A DNA stretch of 56,960 nucleotides from Lachnospiraceae bacterium (GTDB lineage Bacteria; Bacillota; Clostridia; Lachnospirales; Lachnospiraceae), in contig JAJQCQ010000018.1 of the NCBI GenBank assembly GCA_021202635.1, positions 1-56,960 on the forward strand. Reading direction: 5' to 3'. Below the pieces are notes generated by a model. That model was not told the origin of the DNA. It ran no database searches and was given only the letters and a program-made list of their open reading frames with translations. Shown one piece after another: positions 42,127-53,256 of the stretch (position 1 is the first letter of the stretch; each line of letters begins with the position of its first letter). Made by a program: the position numbers and the translations under genes.

Positions 42127-42657
42127 ATGGCGGAAAAAAGATACAGCAGGGGGACATCTCCGAATGGTGGCAATGGCAGGACAAGAAGCAGGACAAAGGG
42201 TTCGGCTGGAAGCAGGGACTCCTATACCTATGTGGATGGGAATACGGTGCGCCAGCTCCATGTGGAGACAGCCCCCGAAGCGGAAGAATCGGTTTCTGTC
42301 AGCCGTGCGACCAGGAAAAACCGGGAGAGGGCGCTTCAGATGAATGTTGGCTATGTGGCGTTTCTTACGCTGGCAGCGGTGCTTACGGTAGCTGTCTGCG
42401 TGAATTTTCTGCAGCTGCGCGCGGTGAACACACTTCTTCAGGAGAAGGTGGCTTCTCTCACCGCTGAGCTTGATTCGGCGGTTCTGGAAAATGATTCCGA
42501 TTATAACCGTGTGATGAACAGCGTGGATCTGGAGCATGTAAGAGAAGTGGCGACAGAGGAATTGGGAATGCAGCTGGCCACATCGAATCAGGTAGTGACT
42601 TATGAAGCAGAGACCAACGACTACGTCAGACAATATTCTGAGATACCAGAAGAGTAG
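42127..42657 (+). CDS. ftsL: FtsL-like cell division protein
   Basis: A 176-aa bitopic protein. The first 70 residues are cytoplasmic, Arg/Ser/Gly-rich and apparently disordered. A single membrane segment lies at about 72-93. After it comes an extracytoplasmic coiled coil (LLQEKVASLTAELDSAVLEN) and a short DLEHVREVATEELGMQ motif usual for FtsL/DivIC-type proteins. The call rests on topology and position between rsmH and the PBP, since FtsL sequences are poorly conserved. It is longer than most FtsL because of the N-terminal tail. Confidence 0.85.
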   Translation: MAEKRYSRGTSPNGGNGRTRSRTKGSAGSRDSYTYVDGNTVRQLHVETAPEAEESVSVSRATRKNRERALQMNVGYVAFLTLAAVLTVAVCVNFLQLRAVNTLLQEKVASLTAELDSAVLENDSDYNRVMNSVDLEHVREVATEELGMQLATSNQVVTYEAETNDYVRQYSEIPEE

Positions 42658-42667
42658 GTGAAGTGAT

Positions 42668-45010
42668 TTGGCGAATCGGGTAAAAAGAGAACGCAAATTT
42701 TCAAAACGAATGCAGATAAAGCTTCTGGCTTTATTTGGATTCGTTTTGTTGGGATTGGTGGTTTTACTGATTCGGATTGCGTATATTAATGTGACAAAGG
42801 GGAATACCTACGCAAAGCAGGTGCTTTCCCAGAACAATTATGACAGCCAGACGCTGGTTGCCCGCAGGGGCGAGATTCAGGACACAAACGGGATTGCGCT
42901 CGCTTACAGTGAAAAGGTCTACAATCTGGTTCTGGACTGCAAGGCCATCAATGAGGACCTGGATACGTATCTGGAGCCGACGGTGACAGTTCTGAGCGAG
43001 TACTTTGGACTGGATGAGCTGGAGCTGCGGAAGCTGATCACGGATGAAAGTACGGCGAGCAGCCAGTATCAGGTACTGAGCGTAAAAGCGGAGGATGAAG
43101 AGCAGTATCTGACTGCTGATGAAAAAAAGGCCTATGAGGACTACATTGACGAATACGCGGATGTCTCCTCAGATGACCTGACAGAGGCGGAAAAGACGGA
43201 AAAGAAATACCGCTCTCTGGTGACGGGGGTTTCCTTTGAGGAAAAATACATCCGGCATTATCCGTATCATTCCCTTGCCAGCAATACCATCGGTTTCGCG
43301 AACAGCCTGGGGGATGGAATCGTTGGCCTGGAGGCGTATTACGATGAGCAGCTGCAGGGGACGAACGGCCGTATCTTTGGCTATCTGGATGAAGACAGTG
43401 ATTACCAGACCAAGACGATCGCCCCGGAAAATGGCTATACGCTCGTGACGACTCTGGACGTGAATATCCAGGAGATCGTGGAGCGGGTGATCGCGGAGTT
43501 TGACGAGACCTATGGCGACGATACGGATGACGGGACTGCCAAGCATGGCGCGGCGAATGTCGGCGTGGTGGTGATGGACCCGGATTCGGGCGCGATTCTG
43601 GCGATGGCTTCCAACCAGAGCTATGATCTCGAAGACCCGGACAGCGTCATTTACGACTGGTATACAGAAGAAGAAGTCGAGGAGATGGTGGACACGGTCG
43701 TCACGGATGAGTATGGGAATGAGACGACCGAGTATGTTTCTACCCTCTATGATCTGTGGGGAAACTTCTGTGTTTCCGACAGCTTCGAGCCGGGGTCGAC
43801 GTATAAGCCGATCACGATTGCGGCGGCGCTGGAGATCGGTGCGATTTCGACGGATGACACATACTACTGTGACGGCGGCGAATATGTGACGGATACGGAG
43901 ATTCACTGTGACGCCTATCCGGGCGCACACGGACTGGAGACTCTGGAGGACGCGCTGGTGAATTCCTGCAATGACGCCCTGATGCAGATTGCGGCGAAAA
44001 TGCATGTCTCGAATTTTCTCAAATATCAGACGCTGTTTGGCTTTGGCCAGAAAACCGGCATTGACCTGCCGAATGAGTCGGCCGGCGTGATTTATACACA
44101 GGAAAAGATGAATGAGGTTGAGCTGGCGACCTGTTCCTTTGGCCAGGGCTTTACCTGTACCATGATTCAGGAAATCGCCGCCTTCTGCGCGGTTGTAAAT
44201 GGAGGGTATTATTATCAGCCGCACGTCGTGGACAAGATTCTCGATGAGGACGGCGCGATTGTAAAAGACAATTCCAGTCTGCTGTTAAAGCAGGTCATTT
44301 CCACCTCGACCTCGGATATACTGAAGGAATACCTGGAGAGCGTTGTAGAAGAGGGTACCGGAAGGACGGCCCGTGTGCCGGGGTACCGGGTGGGCGGAAA
44401 AACCGGTACGGCGGAGAAGATTGATTCCGAGACCGGAGAGCGTGCGGACGGACTGTATCTTGTTTCTTTCATTGGTGCGGCGCCGATCAATGACCCGGAA
44501 GTTGTTATTTATGTGGTCGTCGATGAGCCGAACGTGGAAAACCAGGCGAGCAGCAGCTATGCACAGAAGATTTTCCAGTCGATTGCCCTGGAGGTATATC
44601 CTTATCTGGGACTTACGGCGACGGAAGAGATCACGGACAGTCTGCTGGCGGAGCTGGGACTGACCGAAGAGGACGTAGAGGATGTGGATTCTACAGCCGA
44701 GAGCGTGACGACGTTCCAGGCATTCGATTCCTATGGGAATCTCTACAGCAATGCGCGTGTCGTGGACGGCGAGGTTGTGGATGAAAATGGAAATGCGATC
44801 GCCGGCGCCTATATTGACGAGGACGGCACGGTCTATGACGGCTATATGAACGCGGTCTCCTCGGTGAATACAGACGGCAGCAGTGAAGATGACGATACGG
44901 AGGAATCCATTGCGACGAACCCGGATATGGCGGTGCCCCTGGATGAAAATTCAGCGGACGACTCAGATACCACCCTGGTGGACCCGACGGATATTGCCGA
45001 AGAAGAATAG
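42668..45010 (+). CDS. Division penicillin-binding protein (FtsI/PBP2B-like) with an extra C-terminal module
   Basis: A 780-aa class B PBP that cross-links septal peptidoglycan. Membrane anchor at about 17-40, PBP dimer domain to about 270, transpeptidase with S377-T-Y-K380, S433-C-N435 and K578-T-G-T581. The start is TTG at 42668 after AGGTGA; no ATG fits. After the catalytic domain (ends about 660) comes an unusual tail: a 46-residue module (685-730, AFDSYGNL at its start, DGEVVDENGNA in the middle) and then an acidic end. The module aligns without gaps to the C-terminus of DivIB encoded at 52093. No PASTA domain is seen. Confidence 0.93.
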   Translation: MANRVKRERKFSKRMQIKLLALFGFVLLGLVVLLIRIAYINVTKGNTYAKQVLSQNNYDSQTLVARRGEIQDTNGIALAYSEKVYNLVLDCKAINEDLDTYLEPTVTVLSEYFGLDELELRKLITDESTASSQYQVLSVKAEDEEQYLTADEKKAYEDYIDEYADVSSDDLTEAEKTEKKYRSLVTGVSFEEKYIRHYPYHSLASNTIGFANSLGDGIVGLEAYYDEQLQGTNGRIFGYLDEDSDYQTKTIAPENGYTLVTTLDVNIQEIVERVIAEFDETYGDDTDDGTAKHGAANVGVVVMDPDSGAILAMASNQSYDLEDPDSVIYDWYTEEEVEEMVDTVVTDEYGNETTEYVSTLYDLWGNFCVSDSFEPGSTYKPITIAAALEIGAISTDDTYYCDGGEYVTDTEIHCDAYPGAHGLETLEDALVNSCNDALMQIAAKMHVSNFLKYQTLFGFGQKTGIDLPNESAGVIYTQEKMNEVELATCSFGQGFTCTMIQEIAAFCAVVNGGYYYQPHVVDKILDEDGAIVKDNSSLLLKQVISTSTSDILKEYLESVVEEGTGRTARVPGYRVGGKTGTAEKIDSETGERADGLYLVSFIGAAPINDPEVVIYVVVDEPNVENQASSSYAQKIFQSIALEVYPYLGLTATEEITDSLLAELGLTEEDVEDVDSTAESVTTFQAFDSYGNLYSNARVVDGEVVDENGNAIAGAYIDEDGTVYDGYMNAVSSVNTDGSSEDDDTEESIATNPDMAVPLDENSADDSDTTLVDPTDIAEEE

Positions 45011-45091
45011 CGGCAGGGAACCGTTGCGAAATCCGCATGTAAGGCCGGAGACCGGAATAAAATATATGGATCGAACGTCTCTGGAGTCCTT

Positions 45092-46915
45092 ATGCAGAAA
45101 ACAAAATCCTTTCACCGCAGAAAAATCCTGCTGATTTTCGCGGTGTGTATGCTGGCGCTGGTCTTCCTGATCGGAAGACTGGCGTATCTGATGATTGGAA
45201 GGTCCGAATATTATACTGCCCTGGCGGAGGACCTGCATGAACGGGAGCGCTCGATCAAGGCGGCCCGCGGCAGGATTCTGGACCGCAATGGGATCATCCT
45301 TGCGGATAACCGGACGGTCTGCACCGTATCAGTGATCCACAGTCAGATCACAGACCCGGAGACCGCCATCGCGGTGCTGAGTGAGGCGCTTGGCATGGAG
45401 GAAGAGACGGTTCGGACGAAGGTAGAAAAGGTCAGCTCGATGGAGCGGATCAAAAGCAACGTTGACAAGGAGACGGGCGATCTGATCCGCAGCTGCGGAC
45501 TGGACGGTGTGAAGGTCGATGAGGACTATAAGCGCACCTATCCGTTTGGAAGCATGGCGTCTAAGGTGCTTGGCTTCACCGGCGCAGATAATCAGGGAAT
45601 CATCGGCCTGGAAGTACGCTATGAGGAGGTCCTTTCCGGGACACCCGGAACGATCCTGACTCTCACGGACGCGCGCGGAGTGGAGCTGGAGAATACCGCG
45701 GAAACGCGTGTGGAGCCGGTGGCGGGCGATGACCTCGTCATCAGCCTTGATTATAATATCCAGCAGTATGTGGAACAGGCGGCTTATAATGTGCTGGAGC
45801 AGAAGCAGGCAGACAGTGTGTCCATCATCGTGATGAACCCGCAGAACGGGGAAATCTACGCGATGACCAACGTGCCGGAATTCGACCTGAATGATCCGTA
45901 TACACTGACGGAGCTGTATCTGGAATTAAATAGTGAGGAGCAATCGGCTGTCGGTGAAGGGACAGCAGACACTCTGGCAGAGACAGCGGCCGGAACACTG
46001 ACGAATGAGGAGCTTCAGGACGCGCTCAACCAGATGTGGCGCAACGGCTGCATCAATGATACCTACGAGCCGGGTTCCACGTTTAAAATCATCACCGCGG
46101 CGGCCGGACTGGAGGAGGGTGTGGTCACACTGGACGACACGTTCTATTGTCCGGGCTATAAGCTGGTGGATGACCGGCGGATCCGCTGTCATAAGACGGC
46201 GGGACATGGCGCGGAGACATTTCTGGAGGCGGCGCAGAATTCCTGCAATCCGGTCTTTATTGAGGTCGGACTGCGCCTGGGAGTGGACAGCTATTATCGC
46301 TATTTTGATCAGTTTGGCTTAAATGACAAGACGGGGATTGACCTGCCGGGCGAGGCGGCGACGATCATGCATCAGAAGGAAAACGTAGGGCAGGTGGAGC
46401 TTGCCACGATTTCATTCGGTCAGTCGTTCCAGATCACGCCGATTCAGCTCATCACGACCGTCAGCTCAATTATCAACGGCGGCGTGCGTGTCACCCCGCA
46501 TTTTGGTGTGCGCGTAAACGCGGAAGACGGCACGCTGCTGGAGGTATACCAGTATGACAACGGGGAGCGGATTCTTTCTGAAGAGACCTCAGAGACGATG
46601 CGTTACCTGCTCGAACAGGTGGTAGACGGCGGTTCCGGCAAAAACGCTTATATCGAAGGCTATCGGATCGGAGGAAAGACCGCGACATCCGAAACGCTTC
46701 CGCGCGGCCAGGGAAAATATATTTCTTCATTCGTCGGTTTTGCTCCGGCGGATGATCCGCAGGTGATCTGCCTGTGTGTGATCAACAATCCGCAGGGAAC
46801 GTATTACGGCGGCACCATCGCAGCACCGGTGGTGAAGGATATTTTTGAAAATATACTGCCGTATCTGGGACTGGAAAAGGAAGCAGAGGAAACGACAGAA
46901 AAAGATTTCAGGTAA
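45092..46915 (+). CDS. Class B penicillin-binding protein, SpoVD-like
   Basis: A 607-aa transpeptidase with a membrane anchor at about 13-35, a dimer domain (ARGRILDRNGIILADNRTV) and a catalytic domain with S329-T-F-K332, S384-C-N386 and K529-T-A531. The third motif is KTA instead of the usual KTG. I recall this in SpoVD-type proteins of Lachnospiraceae, but could not check it. Position between the division PBP and mraY fits spoVD (spore cortex). It lacks a PASTA domain. Its TAA stop lies inside a GTAAC repeat (46912-46932). Confidence 0.85.
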   Translation: MQKTKSFHRRKILLIFAVCMLALVFLIGRLAYLMIGRSEYYTALAEDLHERERSIKAARGRILDRNGIILADNRTVCTVSVIHSQITDPETAIAVLSEALGMEEETVRTKVEKVSSMERIKSNVDKETGDLIRSCGLDGVKVDEDYKRTYPFGSMASKVLGFTGADNQGIIGLEVRYEEVLSGTPGTILTLTDARGVELENTAETRVEPVAGDDLVISLDYNIQQYVEQAAYNVLEQKQADSVSIIVMNPQNGEIYAMTNVPEFDLNDPYTLTELYLELNSEEQSAVGEGTADTLAETAAGTLTNEELQDALNQMWRNGCINDTYEPGSTFKIITAAAGLEEGVVTLDDTFYCPGYKLVDDRRIRCHKTAGHGAETFLEAAQNSCNPVFIEVGLRLGVDSYYRYFDQFGLNDKTGIDLPGEAATIMHQKENVGQVELATISFGQSFQITPIQLITTVSSIINGGVRVTPHFGVRVNAEDGTLLEVYQYDNGERILSEETSETMRYLLEQVVDGGSGKNAYIEGYRIGGKTATSETLPRGQGKYISSFVGFAPADDPQVICLCVINNPQGTYYGGTIAAPVVKDIFENILPYLGLEKEAEETTEKDFR

Positions 46916-46932
46916 CGGTTCAGAGCAGTTAC
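46912..46932 (+). repeat. Short GTAAC palindrome overlapping a stop codon
   Basis: GTAACGGTTCAGAGCAGTTAC. The TAA at 46913-46915 is the stop codon of the SpoVD-like gene. Confidence 0.7.
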
Positions 46933-46963
46933 GATTTCAGGAGCATGTAAGGAGGAAAAAAGT

Positions 46964-47947
46964 ATGAACATGAATCCGGATATTTTTATTCCACTGTTTG
47001 TGGCGTTTGCGATCAGCGTGGCGCTCAGCCCGTTTGTCATCCCCTTTCTGCGGCGGCTAAAGGTGGGACAGACAGAGCGTGTGGAAGGCGTGCAGTCTCA
47101 TCTGAAAAAAGGCGGCACCCCGACGATGGGCGGACTGATTATGCTGATTGCGATTGTGATCACTTCCTTAATTTATATCGGGCGTTATCCGCGCATGATC
47201 CCGGTGCTGTTTCTGACGCTGGGATTTGGCATCATCGGATTTCTGGACGATTATCTGAAGGTTGTGCTGCACCGGTCGGATGGCCTGTATCCGAAACAGA
47301 AAATGCTGGGGCAGAACATCGTGACAACGATATTCATTGTTTATATCTGGAAAATGGACAACTCCTGCCTGGAGCTTCTGATTCCGTTTAGCGGGGGCTA
47401 CGTGATCACAGGAGATTCCTTTGGCGGGGTTTTTCGCTATCTGTCCATCCCGCTGGCGTACTTTGTGATCATCGGAACGGTCAATGGCGTGAACTTTACC
47501 GATGGCCTGGACGGGCTGGCGAGCAGCGTAACCCTGATGGTGGCGATTTTCTTTACCGCTGTGTCGATGATTCTCGGAGGCGGGATTGAGCCTCTGACTG
47601 CGGCAGTGGCGGGTGCCTTGATCGGTTTTCTGCTGTTCAATGTTTACCCGGCGCAGGTATTTATGGGCGATACCGGTTCACTGGCACTCGGAGGGTTCGT
47701 GGCGGGGAGCGCTTACCTTCTGCGCATGCCGATTTTCATTTTGATTGTAGGCCTGGTGTATCTGGTAGAGGTGCTTTCTGTCATCATACAGGTGACTTAT
47801 TTTAAGGCGACAGGCGGAAAGCGGTTTTTTAAAATGGCGCCGATTCACCATCATTTTGAACTCTGCGGATGGTCCGAGACGAGGATTGTGACGGTGTTCA
47901 CGGTGGTAACCGCGTTTCTGTGTCTGTTGGCGCTGTATGCGCTTTGA
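46964..47947 (+). CDS. mraY: Phospho-N-acetylmuramoyl-pentapeptide transferase
   Basis: A 327-aa polytopic membrane enzyme that makes lipid I from UDP-MurNAc-pentapeptide and undecaprenyl phosphate. About ten membrane helices. Catalytic and Mg-binding sequences FLDDYLK (about 90-96), NGVNFTDGLDGLAS (about 174-187) and the histidine-rich APIHHHFEL (about 295-303) are intact. AAGGAGG lies 9 bases before the ATG. It follows a GTAAC repeat and precedes murD. Confidence 0.97.
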   Translation: MNMNPDIFIPLFVAFAISVALSPFVIPFLRRLKVGQTERVEGVQSHLKKGGTPTMGGLIMLIAIVITSLIYIGRYPRMIPVLFLTLGFGIIGFLDDYLKVVLHRSDGLYPKQKMLGQNIVTTIFIVYIWKMDNSCLELLIPFSGGYVITGDSFGGVFRYLSIPLAYFVIIGTVNGVNFTDGLDGLASSVTLMVAIFFTAVSMILGGGIEPLTAAVAGALIGFLLFNVYPAQVFMGDTGSLALGGFVAGSAYLLRMPIFILIVGLVYLVEVLSVIIQVTYFKATGGKRFFKMAPIHHHFELCGWSETRIVTVFTVVTAFLCLLALYAL

Positions 47948-47954
47948 GGTGCAT

Positions 47955-47996
47955 GGTCACACAAAGCCTGTAACGATAAAGGTACGGAATTGTTAC
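47955..47996 (+). repeat. Dispersed GGTCACAC plus GTAAC...GTTAC repeats between mraY and murD
   Basis: GGTCACACAAAGCCTGTAAC joins directly to the 27-base palindrome GTAACGATAAAGGTACGG through TTGTTAC (47970-47996). The first seven bases and the AAGGTACGGAA core are shared with 36420-36446. Confidence 0.75.
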
Positions 47997-48048
47997 GGGA
48001 TTTTAAGGCGTCTGCCATAGGCGGATTTTTTGCAAGGAGGAGAAAGTC

Positions 48049-49434
48049 ATGGATCTGAAGAACAGCCGCGTTCTGGTATTTGGTGCGGGAAAAAGCGGGA
48101 TTGGCGCGGCAGGGCTGCTTTTGCGCGCTTCTGCCGCTGAAGTAATTTTATATGACGGGAATGAACAGCTGGACAAAGAGCAGCTGCGCGCGAAGGTGAC
48201 AGAAGTCTCTTCGACGGAGGCAGCGGCGTCCCTTAAGGTGATTCTGGGTGAGCTTCCGCCGGAAGTGATCAGAGGACTGGATCTGGCGATCCTCAGTCCG
48301 GGCGTGCCGACGGACCTGCCGCTGGTGAATACCATACGGGAGAGCGGCGTGCCAATCTGGGGCGAGGTCGAGCTCGCCTGGGAGTGCGGGAAAGGCGATG
48401 TCCTGGCAGTGACCGGGACGAATGGCAAGACGACCACCACGAGCCTGCTCGGTGAGATCATGGAGAATTACGCAAAAGGCCAGGTTTATGTCGTAGGCAA
48501 TATCGGCAACCCTTATACGGACGTGGCAGATCGGATGACGGAAAAGTCGATCACCGTCGCGGAGATTTCGAGTTTTCAGCTGGAGACGATTGAAGGCTTT
48601 GCGCCGAAGGTCAGCGCCATTCTGAATATTACGCCCGATCATTTAAACCGCCACCATACGATGGAGGAATACATACGGGTGAAGGAGCTGATCACGGAAA
48701 ATCAGGGCGTGGAGGATACCTGTGTCCTGAATTACGAGGATGCGCTTCTGCGGGAGTTTGGAAAGACCTTAAAGACGAAGGTCATTTACTTCAGCAGTCT
48801 GCATAAACTGGATAAGGGACTGTATCTGAATGGAGACCAGATCTGTTACAGCGACGGGGAGAATGAGACCGTTCTCTGCCGTACCGGTGAGCTGAACATT
48901 CTGGGCCGCCACAATCATGAGAATGTCATGGCGGCGGCGGGGATGGCGCTCGCTTACGGTGTTCCTGTGGAAATCATTCGCGATACGGTCTGCGCGTTTC
49001 AGGCGGTAGAGCACCGGATCGAGTATGTGACGGAGAAAAAAGGGGTTGTCTACTACAACGATTCAAAGGGGACGAACCCGGATGCGGCCATCAAGGGCAT
49101 TCAGGCAATGAACCGCCCGACTCTGCTGATCGGCGGAGGGTATGATAAAAATTCTTCCTACGAGGAATGGATTCAGGCGTTTGACGGAAAAGTGAAATAC
49201 CTGGTATTGATCGGACAGACGAGAGAAAAAATTGCCGAGGCGGCAAAGAACTGCGGCTTTGAAGCCTGTGTGCTGAAGGATTCTCTGGAAGAGGCGGTTG
49301 CGTTCTGTGCGCAGAATGCTGTCAGCGGAGACGCAGTGCTGCTCTCACCGGCCTGTGCCAGCTGGGGGATGTTTCCGAATTATGAGGAGCGCGGCAGGCA
49401 GTTTAAAGAACTGGTAAATCAGCTTGACGGATGA
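48049..49434 (+). CDS. murD: UDP-N-acetylmuramoyl-L-alanine--D-glutamate ligase
   Basis: A 461-aa cytoplasmic Mur ligase that adds D-glutamate to the peptidoglycan precursor. The N-terminal UMP-binding Rossmann domain has VFGAGKSGIGAAG. The ATP site is GTNGKTTT (123-130). ITPDHLNRH and EHRIEYV (hinge) and the C-terminal SPACASWGMFPNYEERG motif are normal. CAAGGAGG lies before the ATG. Its stop (49432-49434) is 9 bases before the proposed CTG start of ftsW, so the two are likely coupled. Confidence 0.97.
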   Translation: MDLKNSRVLVFGAGKSGIGAAGLLLRASAAEVILYDGNEQLDKEQLRAKVTEVSSTEAAASLKVILGELPPEVIRGLDLAILSPGVPTDLPLVNTIRESGVPIWGEVELAWECGKGDVLAVTGTNGKTTTTSLLGEIMENYAKGQVYVVGNIGNPYTDVADRMTEKSITVAEISSFQLETIEGFAPKVSAILNITPDHLNRHHTMEEYIRVKELITENQGVEDTCVLNYEDALLREFGKTLKTKVIYFSSLHKLDKGLYLNGDQICYSDGENETVLCRTGELNILGRHNHENVMAAAGMALAYGVPVEIIRDTVCAFQAVEHRIEYVTEKKGVVYYNDSKGTNPDAAIKGIQAMNRPTLLIGGGYDKNSSYEEWIQAFDGKVKYLVLIGQTREKIAEAAKNCGFEACVLKDSLEEAVAFCAQNAVSGDAVLLSPACASWGMFPNYEERGRQFKELVNQLDG

Positions 49435-49443
49435 GGTGATACT

Positions 49444-50589
49444 CTGAGTTGGGAACCGGATTCTGAAAGGAAGACGATACAGGCCAGTGGTCCGGCCGAC
49501 GGACTGCTGATACTGGCGATCCTTTTTCTGTGCGGGTTTGGGCTGCTTGTCCTCTCCAGCGCCAGCGCTTACAATGGGCAGGTTCGCTTTGGCGATGCGG
49601 CCTGGTATCTGAAAAAACAGTTTTTTGCCATGGCGCTTGGCCTGGCGGCGATGGCGGGCATTTCCGCGATTGATTACCACAGGCTGAAACGCTTTTCCGG
49701 GGCGGCTTACCTGCTCTCTCTGCTTTTATCCGGGGCGGTGCTGCTGTTCGGGGATGCTTATAATGGTTCCCGGCGCTGGTTGTCCATCGGACCGCTGTCG
49801 TTCCAGCCTGCGGAATATGCCAAACCGGCAGTGATTCTGCTGCTTGCCGGTGTGGTCAGTCAGAGGCTGGGGAGGCTGCGCGGCGGTGGGATGATTGCCG
49901 CGGTCTTTCTGATGGTATTGCCGATCGTCGCCCTGGTGGGGACGAACAATCTGAGCACAGCGGTCATCATTCTGGGAATCGCGGTCATCATGATTTTTAT
50001 CTCAAACCCGAAGATTTTACCGTTTCTGTGGGTCGCAGTGGCGGGCGCCGGATTCCTGGCGGTTTTCCTGAGCCTGGAATCCTATCGGCTGGAGCGTCTG
50101 GCGATCTGGCGCAACCCGGAGCTCTATGAGAAGGGATACCAGACGCTGCAGGGGCTGTACGCGATTGGCTCTGGCGGCCTTTTCGGTCTCGGACTTGGCA
50201 ACAGTCTGCAAAAGCTGGGATTTGTGCCGGAAGCGCAGAATGACATGATTTTCTGTGTGATCTGTGAGGAGCTGGGATTTGTGGGCGCCAGCCTTCTGAT
50301 TCTGCTGTTTTTGCTGCTGCTGTGGCGGTTTATGGTCATTGCGACGCATGCGCCGGATCTCTTCGGCTCGCTGATCGTGGCGGGCATCATGGGGCATATT
50401 GCGATTCAGGTGATTCTGAACATTGCGGTCGTGACGAATACGATTCCGAACACCGGTATCACGCTTCCGTTTATCAGCTATGGCGGCACCTCCATGCTGT
50501 TTCTGCTCGCGGAAATGGGACTGGCGCTTTCGGTCAGCCGCTGCAGCGTCTGGCCGGGAAAACGGCGGCGGTCCGCACAATCGGTCTGA
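49444..50589 (+). CDS. ftsW: Septal peptidoglycan glycosyltransferase FtsW, CTG start
   Basis: A 381-aa SEDS-family polymerase with ten membrane segments; it polymerises lipid II at the septum with the division PBP. The first membrane helix and its conserved end (LLVLSSASAYNGQVRFGDAA) lie upstream of the first ATG (49630), in a frame that opens only after a stop at 49432. No ATG, GTG or TTG lies in between. CTG at 49444, with GAGGTGA (49434-49440) just before it, is the only plausible start. Later hallmarks are intact, including FQPAEYAKP and the C-terminal NTGITLPFISYGGTSM. Losing the first helix would be unusual for the family. Confidence 0.85.
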   Translation: MSWEPDSERKTIQASGPADGLLILAILFLCGFGLLVLSSASAYNGQVRFGDAAWYLKKQFFAMALGLAAMAGISAIDYHRLKRFSGAAYLLSLLLSGAVLLFGDAYNGSRRWLSIGPLSFQPAEYAKPAVILLLAGVVSQRLGRLRGGGMIAAVFLMVLPIVALVGTNNLSTAVIILGIAVIMIFISNPKILPFLWVAVAGAGFLAVFLSLESYRLERLAIWRNPELYEKGYQTLQGLYAIGSGGLFGLGLGNSLQKLGFVPEAQNDMIFCVICEELGFVGASLLILLFLLLLWRFMVIATHAPDLFGSLIVAGIMGHIAIQVILNIAVVTNTIPNTGITLPFISYGGTSMLFLLAEMGLALSVSRCSVWPGKRRRSAQSV

Positions 50590-50726
50590 TTCATGCATAT
50601 AGTAATCTACAGGTTATGGTTTCGCCTGACGGAGCAGGCAGCTGTGGGAACCGGGAAGGCAGGGAGCAGCTGCGGGCTGCGGGTGCCCTGACAGCCGCAG
50701 CCGGATGGCGAACCGGATATGTATGA

Positions 50727-52088
50727 ATGGAGGCAGACCGCTTGCGCTATCTGGAAATTGCAGGGAGAAGGCCGCTTTGTGGCGAATTGACGATACAGGG
50801 GTCAAAGAATGCGGCGCTGCCGGTTCTGACGGCCTGTCTGTTGGGGGATGGCCCATGCATCATCGATAATTGCCCGCAGATTCAGGATGTGGAGGATACG
50901 CTCGCGATCCTTCGAATGCTTGGATGCAAAACAGAACGTACCGGCCATACCGTTTCGGTTGACCCATCCGGAATGGAAAAAACTGCGATTTTCGGCCCGC
51001 AGGCGGAAAGAATCCGTTCTTCTGTCTTGTTTTTAGGGGCGCTTCTTGGTAGAATGGGAGAAGCGGCGCTTCCCTATCCGGGAGGGTGCGCGATCGGCAG
51101 CCGTCCGATTGATTATCACCTGCGCGCGCTGGAGAAGCTGGGCGTGCGGTTTTCAAAGAGCTCCCCATCCGGCGCGTCAGGCGGCGCTTCTTTCCGGCAG
51201 ACGGAGGGCTCTGACGGAGAAGATGGTTCGGGTCTGGGCAGTGACGGCATTTACGCAAGCGCGACGCGGCTGCGCGGCGCCGGGATCCGCCTGCCGCAGC
51301 CCAGTGTCGGGGCGACGGAAAACACGATTCTCGCGGCAGTTCTTGCCGACGGGGAGACGGTGATTGAGAACGCGGCGCTGGAGCCGGAGATAGACGAACT
51401 CTGCCGGTTCCTGAATCTGCGCGGGGCTAAAATCCGGAGAGAGCGCGGCAGACGAATCCGGATTTTCGGAAAACAGACGCTCGGACCGGTGCGGTATCGG
51501 CTGGACGCGGACCGTATTGTAGCAGGGAGCTACCTGCTGGCGGGGGCAGCCTGCGGAGGAAGCATTCATTTTCGCAATTTACCGGCTGAGCAGCTTTCGG
51601 CACTGCTTGCAGTCCTTTCCCGCATGGGGGTACAGGTGGCGGAGGATGGCCGGATGTGTGCCGGGGAACGGCCTCTGGCTGTGGAAAATATTGCGACGGC
51701 TCCTTATCCCGGCTTTCCGACAGACCTGCAGTCTCCGCTCATGGCAGCTCTTGGCCTTGCCCGGGGAGAGAGCCGGATCTGGGAGCGCATGTTTGAAAAT
51801 CGATTCCGCACGGCGGCCTGTCTGCGCAAAATGGGCGCGGATATTACCATAGAAGGCAGCTGCGCGCGGATAAAGGGAACAGCCACCCTGCGGGGGGGGG
51901 CAGAGGTACGCGCGCCGGATTTGCGCGGCGGCGCGGCTCTGGTGACGGCGGCGCTGGCCGCGTCCGGCCGCTCCAGAATAGAAGGGTACGAATACATTGC
52001 GCGGGGATATGAGGATATCTGCCGTGATTTTCAGAGCCTGGGGGCGGAAATCCGCCTGACGGAAGACAGGGATGAAAAGGTTTGGTGA
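50727..52088 (+). CDS. murA: UDP-N-acetylglucosamine 1-carboxyvinyltransferase
   Basis: A 453-aa enzyme of the first committed step of peptidoglycan synthesis. K27 (GSKNAALP) and the PEP-reactive, fosfomycin-target cysteine C121 (YPGGCAIGSRPIDYH) are present, as are DRIVAGSYL and PGFPTDLQSP. An insert of about 30 Gly/Ser-rich residues (about 143-175) interrupts the domain after HLRALEKLGVRFSK; it is low-complexity and unusual. Some GC-rich codon runs occur here (for example a G8 tract at 51893-51900, in frame). It stands between ftsW and divIB, where murG and murB lie in B. subtilis. Its stop lies 4 bases before the preferred divIB start. Confidence 0.93.
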   Translation: MEADRLRYLEIAGRRPLCGELTIQGSKNAALPVLTACLLGDGPCIIDNCPQIQDVEDTLAILRMLGCKTERTGHTVSVDPSGMEKTAIFGPQAERIRSSVLFLGALLGRMGEAALPYPGGCAIGSRPIDYHLRALEKLGVRFSKSSPSGASGGASFRQTEGSDGEDGSGLGSDGIYASATRLRGAGIRLPQPSVGATENTILAAVLADGETVIENAALEPEIDELCRFLNLRGAKIRRERGRRIRIFGKQTLGPVRYRLDADRIVAGSYLLAGAACGGSIHFRNLPAEQLSALLAVLSRMGVQVAEDGRMCAGERPLAVENIATAPYPGFPTDLQSPLMAALGLARGESRIWERMFENRFRTAACLRKMGADITIEGSCARIKGTATLRGGAEVRAPDLRGGAALVTAALAASGRSRIEGYEYIARGYEDICRDFQSLGAEIRLTEDRDEKVW

Positions 52089-52092
52089 ACAT

Positions 52093-53256
52093 ATGAGAAA
52101 GAGACGAAAACGGATTCTGAAAAATATCGGTATGCTGCTGGCACTGGCTGTTCTGGTGCTGGCAGGCCTGTTTGTATTCCGGGTGAGCAATGTGACCGTG
52201 TCCGGCAACAGCCGTTACTCTTCAGAGCAGATTGAGGAAGGATTGCTGACCGATTTTTTTTCCAGGAATACGCTATGTCTCTGGTGGACTTATAAAGATG
52301 GGAGTATTCCCGATACCATGCCTTATCTGGAGAGTATGGAGATTACGGTCAATTCTCCTTTCTCCATTACCGTCACAGTCACGGAAAAAGAACTGGTCGG
52401 CTATTTTGACACCGGAAGCTATGTATATTTTGACGACAGCGGCGTGGTTCTGGAGATCACGGATACCATTTACAGCGACATACCGGTGATTACAGGGATC
52501 AGCCTCGGGGAAGTGACCCTGTACCAGAAAGCGCCGACAGAGAGCAGCTCTCAGCTCCGCACGATACTGACCCTGCTCGATCTGCTGGACTATCAGGGGC
52601 TGACGGCAAAGGAGATTCGCTTCTCGGATAATTCCGAGATTACCGTGACGATTGGCTATATCGACGTGATTCTTGGTCAGGATGAATATCTGGAAGAAAA
52701 AGTGGCTAACTTAAGAGCGATTCTCGACACGATGACAAGTACGACCGCCGGCACGCTGCATCTGGAAAACGTGACGGGGAAGAATGAGGACATTGTCTTT
52801 TCGCCTTCCGATGAGGTGATCGAAGAGACCGAGACCGAAACAGAGACGTCGGAAAACGACGGCTCGGAGGAAAGCACGGCGGCGGACACCTCCACGCTCG
52901 GCGGCGCCACTACGGACGGCAGCGCGGCCGGCACCACGGACAGCTCCGGAGAGGATGCCGCGGATGACGATTCGGGAAGCGACGATGCGGATTCGGCCGG
53001 CACCGCGGATGAAGACAGCGATGATTCTGCGGACGATGCGGATGATGCTTCCGATGAGGTGGTTTCCACCGCGGATGTGATGGCCTTCAACTCCAGCGGT
53101 CAGCTGATCCATCATGTATCGATTCAGGACGGCGTAGTGGTAGACTCCAGCGGAAATGCGGTGGACGGCTGCTATGTGAACGAGGATGGAAATATCGTGG
53201 ACGCTTATCAGAATATTATTGATCCGGTGACCGGGGATGCGCTGAACCTGCAGTAA
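52093..53256 (+). CDS. Cell division protein DivIB/FtsQ with an acidic linker and C-terminal module
   Basis: A protein of about 387 aa. Short basic cytoplasmic N-terminus, membrane segment at about 12-33, POTRA (FRVSNVTVSGNSRYSSEQIE) and beta domains to about 240. Then about 85 residues of nearly pure Asp, Glu, Ser, Thr, Ala and Gly, and finally a 46-residue module (about 331-376; AFNSSGQL at its start, DGVVVDSSGNA in the middle) that matches the tail of the division PBP (42668). ATG 52093 has GGTGA 5-6 bases upstream; an ATG at 52072 would overlap murA. DivIB helps recruit and control the FtsW-PBP pair. Confidence 0.9.
   Translation: MRKRRKRILKNIGMLLALAVLVLAGLFVFRVSNVTVSGNSRYSSEQIEEGLLTDFFSRNTLCLWWTYKDGSIPDTMPYLESMEITVNSPFSITVTVTEKELVGYFDTGSYVYFDDSGVVLEITDTIYSDIPVITGISLGEVTLYQKAPTESSSQLRTILTLLDLLDYQGLTAKEIRFSDNSEITVTIGYIDVILGQDEYLEEKVANLRAILDTMTSTTAGTLHLENVTGKNEDIVFSPSDEVIEETETETETSENDGSEESTAADTSTLGGATTDGSAAGTTDSSGEDAADDDSGSDDADSAGTADEDSDDSADDADDASDEVVSTADVMAFNSSGQLIHHVSIQDGVVVDSSGNAVDGCYVNEDGNIVDAYQNIIDPVTGDALNLQ

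What the first reader, a model, noticed from the sequence alone, without database searches (positions are those of the whole stretch)
44711..53240. Same 46-residue C-terminal module on the division PBP and on DivIB
Residues 685-730 of the PBP (42668-45010) and about 331-376 of DivIB (52093-53256) align without a single gap; I count 21 identities in 46, with shared AF, SxG, DG-VVD, GNA, G-Y, EDG and D-Y-N positions. The rest of the two proteins is unrelated. Both modules are outside the cell and next to a long acidic, Asp/Glu/Ser/Thr-rich stretch (before it in DivIB, after it in the PBP). FtsI-type PBPs and DivIB act in the same complex. A shared, probably short beta-repeat module on two partners could be a co-recruitment, wall-binding or Ca-binding tag of the septum. 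I know of no description of it. This is my best candidate for an undescribed system.
Basis: partly seen in the sequence, partly recalled or inferred. Interest (0 to 1): 0.82.

Follow-up and report, generated by a model that had tools for sequence, protein, structure and literature searches.

The report
Twin domain on two division proteins
In one group of Lachnospiraceae bacteria the cell-division wall enzyme and its partner DivIB each carry a copy of the same small, conserved outer domain, which was found on no other protein of these genomes and suggests a lineage-specific way of coupling the two partners at the division septum.

Summary
The C-terminal segments of the FtsI-type PBP (44708-44866) and of DivIB/FtsQ (53071-53229) are homologous (BLASTP E=7e-11; family against family 99.8% HHalign probability). 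The module is a real domain: in DivIB it is more conserved than the DivIB body, beyond a fast-evolving acidic linker, and AlphaFold2 folds it confidently (56 of 68 residues at pLDDT 90 or more). It is dedicated: 47 of 47 genomes of the genus have it, 45 with two copies (one PBP-sized, one FtsQ-sized frame) and none with three; 3 of 150 family genera have it, each on both proteins. The tree fits one old duplication. One genome lost the PBP copy by an in-frame deletion. Pfam sees it only at the border of DUF3659, function unknown. It sits where four order relatives tested have PASTA domains, which in B. subtilis and S. aureus are reported to contact DivIB. Best reading: a divisome-only domain coupling FtsI to DivIB, by module-module contact or through one shared ligand. 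Function is untested.

The parts
42668..45010 (+). FtsI-type class B PBP (780 aa) that carries the module; dimerisation and transpeptidase domains, no PASTA
   Evidence: Pfam PF03717, PF00905; best NCBIfam SpoVD 448 bits, under its cut-off of 688; no PASTA match
44621..44674 (+). Short conserved T-E-E-x-T-D-x-L-L-x-x-L-G-L stretch between transpeptidase and module (aa 652-669)
   Evidence: seen in the same-genus PBPs; also in sister genus G067, which lacks the module; lost with the module in L054
44708..44866 (+). Module copy on the PBP (about aa 681-733)
   Evidence: E=1.3e-26 with profile A2 in the whole genome
44879..45007 (+). Acidic C-terminal tail of the PBP (43 aa, 40% D/E) with an N-P-x-[MIL] motif
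   Evidence: mean pairwise identity 0.40, median dN/dS 0.53
52072..53256 (+). DivIB/FtsQ gene (ATG at 52072 or 52093): POTRA and FtsQ_DivIB domains, then linker and module
   Evidence: PF03799 23.3 bits, over its cut-off of 21; PF08478 17.9 bits, under its cut-off of 23
52813..53067 (+). Acidic, fast-evolving linker of DivIB (85 aa, 38% D/E, no K/R)
   Evidence: linker mean identity 0.24, median dN/dS 0.76
53071..53253 (+). Module copy on DivIB, reaching to its C-terminus (adds a D-P-x-T-G end)
   Evidence: AlphaFold2 mean pLDDT 88.8; mean identity 0.68, median dN/dS 0.20
42127..42657 (+). FtsL-like ORF just upstream of the PBP (context; no module)
   Evidence: position and a single hydrophobic segment seen in the translation; FtsL name inferred from synteny, not tested by a profile
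45092..46915 (+). Second class B PBP, SpoVD-like (context; no module)
   Evidence: TIGR02214 587 bits, under its cut-off of 688

Best explanation
The module is a divisome-dedicated coupling domain. A small all-beta domain (probably three D-x-x-G-N hairpin repeats) arose or was captured in an ancestor of this Lachnospiraceae clade, was duplicated between ftsI and ftsQ, and has been kept on both since. On DivIB it sits at the tip of a flexible acidic tether; on the PBP it follows the transpeptidase domain closely. It most likely joins FtsI to DivIB outside the membrane, standing in for the PASTA-to-DivIB contact reported for B. subtilis and S. aureus, so that the DivIB/FtsL/DivIC complex can hold or switch on the septal transpeptidase. 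I think direct contact of the two modules somewhat more likely than two modules on one common ligand. Shown: homology, confident fold, purifying selection, near-exclusive pairing, place in the proteins. Inferred: binding, partner, and effect on septal synthesis.
For: One-plus-one copy number at E up to 0.01: 45 of 47 genus genomes have one frame of 621-798 aa and one of 178-477 aa with the module, none has a third (carriers read as PBP or FtsQ, the others judged by frame size). The two other genera with it also have both. In 33 of the 34 genome-contig loci with a PBP end inside the locus both proteins carry it. Protein-database searches scored on the module alone: 16 of 16 hits to the PBP module are PBPs; of 110 hits to the FtsQ module 109 hold FtsQ sequence and one looks like a CdsA chimera. 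Two families, one split, support 97/93. Module more conserved than the DivIB body. Confident fold. Four of four order outgroups tested have PASTA at that place, 0 of 63 aligned family PBPs do. Literature passages: truncating PASTA of S. aureus PBP1 reduced two-hybrid interaction with DivIB and FtsW (PMC9426605); an AlphaFold-Multimer model has DivIB beta and gamma domains mediating contact with PBP1 PASTA (PMC10994846); in B. subtilis PASTA helps to hold PBP2B to DivIB (second-hand, PMC7654740). Weak residual co-variation of the two modules, partial r=0.20, p=0.026, 32 pairs.
Against: No binding data. One genome (G469, taken to be L054's) has lost the PBP module by an in-frame deletion while its DivIB module is intact, so pairing is not obligatory there. 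Both modules are acidic (mean net charge -8.0 on 46 PBP and -6.7 on 47 FtsQ modules), which does not favour simple self-association. 21 of 21 module-less family PBPs in the alignment also lack PASTA, so FtsI can do without either. In pneumococcus DivIB and PBP2x failed to co-purify when a membrane segment was missing (PMC3798694, passages), and the B. subtilis PASTA domains are reported as not essential (PMC7654740). The co-variation signal is small and its permutation test ignores the tree.
Confidence: 0.42

Rival explanations
1. Shared-ligand domain: both modules bind the same third thing at the septum (nascent peptidoglycan, a wall polymer, or another divisome protein such as FtsW or FtsL) and so bring the two proteins to the same place without touching each other.
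For: The same residues are kept in both families (columns G40, D51, N55 invariant in 95 of 95 rows), as expected for one ligand. In S. aureus PBP1 PASTA binds peptidoglycan, and DivIB is called a peptidoglycan-binding protein there (PMC9426605, passages). The DivIB module persists after loss of the PBP module in G469.
Against: A wall-binding domain would be expected on autolysins and other wall enzymes of the same genome; no third copy was found in 47 genus genomes at E up to 0.01. No known wall-binding family among the Pfam matches shown (25 of 27 families shown).
Confidence: 0.36
2. Passive tip or spacer: the module is a stable end-cap or spacer on acidic tails, present twice, with no specific partner.
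For: FtsI tails of other family genera are variable, mostly acidic, and in some almost absent; one genome does without the PBP copy.
Against: In DivIB the module is more conserved (mean identity 0.68, median dN/dS 0.20) than the body (0.54, 0.26) and far more than the linker (0.24, 0.76); a mere cap would not need one shared family on two interacting partners.
Confidence: 0.12
3. Ordinary DUF3659-type or carboxypeptidase-regulatory-like repeat that happens to be on these two proteins, one of many surface repeats.
For: DUF3659 matches 90 of 95 module sequences at E up to 0.1, best 4e-6; two relatives' PBPs pass its cut-off (25.8 and 25.2 against 24.8 bits), and two PBPs and one FtsQ (with its neighbours in the frame) in the genome search; weak generic matches in PDB chains such as SusC, E=0.012.
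Against: In most proteins scanned singly the DUF3659 score is under the cut-off, and different thirds of the module align to different parts of it. The module profiles give no third copy in genus genomes and no convincing hit in other order, class and phylum genomes; the weak hits read are unrelated proteins, many with a G-x-V-x-D-x-x-G-like motif.
Confidence: 0.06
4. Sporulation-septum device: the dcw PBP and FtsQ of this genus act mainly in asymmetric division, as in C. difficile, and the module serves that.
For: C. difficile uses its dcw PG synthases and FtsL, FtsQ, FtsB for sporulation (PMC10693644, abstract and passages); SpoIIE-like genes in 26 of 26 genus genomes searched, none over the family's cut-off.
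Against: The window has two class B PBPs in the cluster, the second more SpoVD-like (587 against 448 bits), the arrangement that the same paper reads as FtsI plus SpoVD in sporulating Bacilli.
Confidence: 0.12

Closest known systems
PASTA domains (PF03793) of division PBPs: S. pneumoniae PBP2x, B. subtilis PBP2B, S. aureus PBP1
   Same: Small extracellular domain after the transpeptidase domain of the division PBP; in B. subtilis and S. aureus tied to DivIB binding (passages)
   Different: No sequence match (0 of 63 PBPs). PASTA is also on serine/threonine kinases (PMC9426605) and, as far as I recall, not on DivIB; the module is on both partners and on nothing else found
Gamma (C-terminal) domain of DivIB in S. 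aureus
   Same: C-terminal extracellular part of DivIB; in the S. aureus model it takes part in contact with the PBP PASTA domains
   Different: Gamma is not known to me as a copy of a domain of the PBP (recalled, not tested); here the DivIB end is homologous to the PBP end
Pfam DUF3659 (PF12396)
   Same: D-x-x-G-N repeats; 90 of 95 modules match at E up to 0.1, a few carriers over the cut-off
   Different: Function unknown, no paper in the library; small DUF3659 lipoproteins of the same genus look otherwise unlike the module by eye
Beta-flower folds (PF21784, PF21785; clan CL0395)
   Same: Small beta-hairpin repeat proteins with a [DNEQ]xxG tip motif (PMC10584680, passages); 21 of 95 modules touch PF21785 at E up to 0.1
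   Different: Far below that family's cut-off (10.8 against 38 bits in the one score shown); about 3 repeats here against 4-6 petals

Membership tests
PASTA (PF03793) | Sequence match to the PASTA profile | tested here: not met
   0 of 63 aligned FtsI-type PBPs (63 of 78 collected; 42 with, 21 without the module) match at E up to 0.01; 4 of 4 order outgroups given do
PASTA (PF03793) | Binds peptidoglycan or DivIB | not testable with these tools
   needs purified protein
DUF3659 (PF12396) | Whole-protein score over the curated cut-off of 24.8 bits | tested here: inconclusive
   window PBP 20.0 and DivIB 16.5 bits; two relatives 25.8 and 25.2; among 41 genomes 5 have a match over the cut-off, three on module proteins (two PBPs, one FtsQ with its neighbours in the frame) and two on small proteins; none over the cut-off in the 14 control genomes
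Beta-flower (PF21785, clan CL0395) | Profile score over cut-off | tested here: not met
   10.8 against 38 bits in P0120; best E among 95 modules 0.0019, which cannot correspond to 38 bits
Beta-flower (PF21785, clan CL0395) | 4-, 5- or 6-fold petal symmetry of the structure | not tested
Carboxypeptidase regulatory-like (PF13620) | Profile score over cut-off | tested here: not met
   22 of 95 modules match at E up to 0.1, best 0.0083; 14.7 against 32.3 bits in the one score shown
Known PDB fold | Clear structural match to a solved domain | tested here: inconclusive
FtsI and DivIB/FtsQ as hosts of the module | PBP_dimer plus transpeptidase; POTRA plus FtsQ_DivIB_C | tested here: met
   PF03717, PF00905 and PF03799 over their cut-offs, POTRA under its cut-off; FtsI versus SpoVD role is inferred from gene order and scores

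The most novel reading that the evidence does not exclude
A homotypic latch of the divisome: FtsI and DivIB carry duplicated copies of one domain that bind each other, perhaps bridged by Ca2+ given the acidic hairpin tips, so that a tethered DivIB tip grasps the PBP and licenses septal synthesis. This would be a partner pair wired by domain duplication, taking the place of PASTA in this lineage.
Probability: 0.25. Interest if true: 0.8.

Novelty: new variant of a known kind. Interest (0 to 1): 0.64.

Why it matters
How DivIB/FtsQ is wired to the septal transpeptidase outside the membrane is, as I understand the field, still an open question. Here evolution points to both ends of one possible contact: a domain of about 50 residues that marks the FtsI end and the DivIB end, is small enough for biochemistry, was found on no other protein of these genomes, and has a natural loss to compare (G469). 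It makes the coupling question testable with two small recombinant domains, and if true it shows that a core divisome contact can be rebuilt in a single lineage.

Full report
What was checked. BLASTP aligns only their C-terminal segments above chance, without a gap: 23 of 53 identical, E=7e-11. A 48-residue core has 21 identities and scores 20 SD above shuffles; the two acidic tails, compared in the same way, are near chance. Family against family: a profile from FtsQ tails alone finds the 25 same-genus PBPs of 29 given, the weakest at E=0.0019, and not the 4 order outgroups; the PBP profile finds 100 of 109 FtsQ homologues; HHalign of the two families gives 99.8%. The 9 FtsQs missed are three that stop before the tail and six distant ones that lack it.

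It is a folded, selected domain. In 44 FtsQs the mean pairwise identity and the median dN/dS are 0.54 and 0.26 for the body, 0.24 and 0.76 for the acidic linker, and 0.68 and 0.20 for the module, which has practically no gaps. In 32 PBPs they are 0.71 and 0.18 for the body, 0.40 and 0.53 for the tail, and 0.56 and 0.28 for the module (dN/dS only from pairs with dS between 0.1 and 1.5, 108 to 223 pairs per region of 946 or 496). So in the PBP the module is less conserved than the catalytic body, and in DivIB it is more conserved than the body. AlphaFold2 with 95 rows (48 FtsQ and 47 PBP modules) gives a compact all-beta model of the DivIB module: mean pLDDT 88.8, 56 of 68 residues at 90 or more, pTM 0.75. 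DSSP shows short strands at 12-13, 19-20, 24-26 / 29-31, 37, 42-43 / 49-50, 56-57, 64. With the D-x-x-G-N-like pattern in each third this suggests three hairpin repeats of about 18 residues (inference; no coordinates were available). Three columns are invariant in all 95 rows: G40, D51, N55.

It is dedicated to two partners. In the window's own genome the module profiles find two real copies; a third, at E=0.37 in a 97-residue frame, looks like chance. In the genus, 47 of 47 genomes have it at E up to 0.01; 45 have exactly two copies, one in a frame of 621-798 aa and one in a frame of 178-477 aa (the shortest are fragments or broken frames); none has three. The carriers were read as PBP or FtsQ; for the other genomes this rests on frame size. 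The two one-copy genomes: G009 (78% complete) shows no ftsQ body in its assembly; G469 (98% complete) has an FtsQ with the module, and its PBP, read in locus L054, whose contig has the same length of 49,071 bases, lost the module and the segment before it by an in-frame deletion and kept the distal tail. In the family, sampled one genome per genus, 3 of 150 genera have the module and each has both copies; the 10 weaker hits in 7 other genomes (E 2.8e-4 to 0.0072) look unrelated on reading. In 295 genomes of the order (E up to 1e-4), 391 of the class and 398 of the phylum (E up to 0.001) only the window's own genome has it; six weak hits, five in the class and one in the phylum (the last at E=4.8e-6), look unrelated on reading (the samples overlap). 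Of 47 loci in the GTDB contig collection one is a 15-residue chance match in Chitinophaga; the other 46 are titled Lachnospiraceae, Clostridiales, Ca. Choladousia, Ca. Merdiplasma, one Oscillospiraceae and one Bacterium 1XD42-54. In 33 of the 34 of these loci with a PBP end inside the locus both proteins carry it, L054 being the exception; in 12 no PBP end was found. That scan used FtsQ-derived patterns, so it would miss very different carriers. Protein-database searches scored on the module alone: 16 of 16 hits are PBPs; of 110 hits with the FtsQ module, 109 contain FtsQ sequence (60 were already among the FtsQ homologues; 49 of 50 new ones match an FtsQ-body profile, one of them a SerS-FtsQ chimera) and one is a CdsA chimera that looks like a misassembly.

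History. In a tree of 95 modules the PBP copies and the FtsQ copies fall on the two sides of one branch (support 97/93; 96% of bootstrap trees), so the duplication seems to predate the radiation of the clade and there is no sign of later exchange (few columns, many unresolved forks, root unknown). FtsIs of family genera outside the clade have variable, mostly acidic tails, in some hardly any; none of 63 aligned PBPs, 21 of them without the module, matches PASTA, while the four order outgroups tested (of 16 genomes) have two PASTA stretches each. So PASTA may have been lost first and the module gained later. The sister genus G067 has look-alike D-x-x-G-N stretches at the ends of both proteins, but not at a significant level.

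What it probably does. The PBP and DivIB act in one complex (established knowledge). In S. aureus, truncating the PBP1 PASTA domains reduced two-hybrid interaction with DivIB and FtsW, and PASTA binds peptidoglycan (PMC9426605, passages); [quoted passage not shown] in B. subtilis PASTA strengthens PBP2B-DivIB binding but is not essential (Morales Angeles 2020, not held, seen second-hand in PMC7654740 and PMC9426605). Here the two places concerned, the PBP end and the DivIB end, carry two copies of one domain. A coupling role is therefore the best reading, by contact of the two modules or by one common ligand. A partial Mantel test shows a small excess co-variation of the two modules over the bodies (r=0.20, p=0.026, 32 pairs), which I count as weak. 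Against direct pairing stand the natural loss in G469, the acidity of both modules, and the pneumococcal finding that DivIB and PBP2x did not co-purify when a membrane segment was missing (PMC3798694, passages). Against a wall tag stands the absence of a third copy.

Verdict. Observation confirmed; interpretation partly supported: a real, paired, divisome-only domain of one Lachnospiraceae clade, with an inferred coupling role.

Noticed in passing
L054 1-2082 / G469:C198: Natural in-frame loss of the PBP module and of the segment before it, while the distal acidic tail and the DivIB module are kept; single MAG.
   Followed up: partly
window 44879-45007 and relatives: After the module the PBP tail keeps a motif N-P-x-[MIL]-x-x-P and, in 18 of the 25 same-genus PBPs (not the window's own), a W-D-[GAP]-like motif near the end; the tail is retained in L054. 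Possibly a second short binding motif.
   Followed up: no
L156 9781-10828, L128 (genus G067): Sister genus without the module has an FtsQ end ...DENGN...IDPYTGSYIN and D-E-Y-G-N-V repeats in the PBP tail: possible precursor or decayed module, not significant by profile.
   Followed up: partly
L143, L151 (other family FtsI): PBP tails end in repeated D-P-[DEN]-T-G units, like the D-P-x-T-G end of the DivIB module.
   Followed up: no
P0107: An FtsQ homologue with a long repetitive tail of D-T-Y-V-D-W-Y-G-D units.
   Followed up: no
P0008 (an FtsQ, longest contig 97821): A public record names this FtsQ 'MSCRAMM family adhesin SdrC', perhaps because of its acidic linker.
   Followed up: no
L173 (G010:C136) and L176 (G007:C67): Two genomes of the genus encode small lipoprotein-like proteins (147 and 121 aa) with D-x-x-G-N repeats over the DUF3659 cut-off; by eye, in L173 the next gene looks like a sigma factor.
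   Followed up: partly
G000:C19:22160-23566 and 25 other genus genomes: SpoIIE-like proteins match only positions 313-763 of the family model (main hits in frames of 465-602 aa), under its cut-off: the N-terminal membrane part seems to be missing in the genus.
   Followed up: no
window 49435-50589: The SEDS (FtsW/SpoVE-like) frame is open back to 49435 but has no ATG/GTG/TTG before 49630, although a hydrophobic, FtsW-like N-terminus lies upstream by eye: an unusual start codon, or a sequence error.
   Followed up: partly
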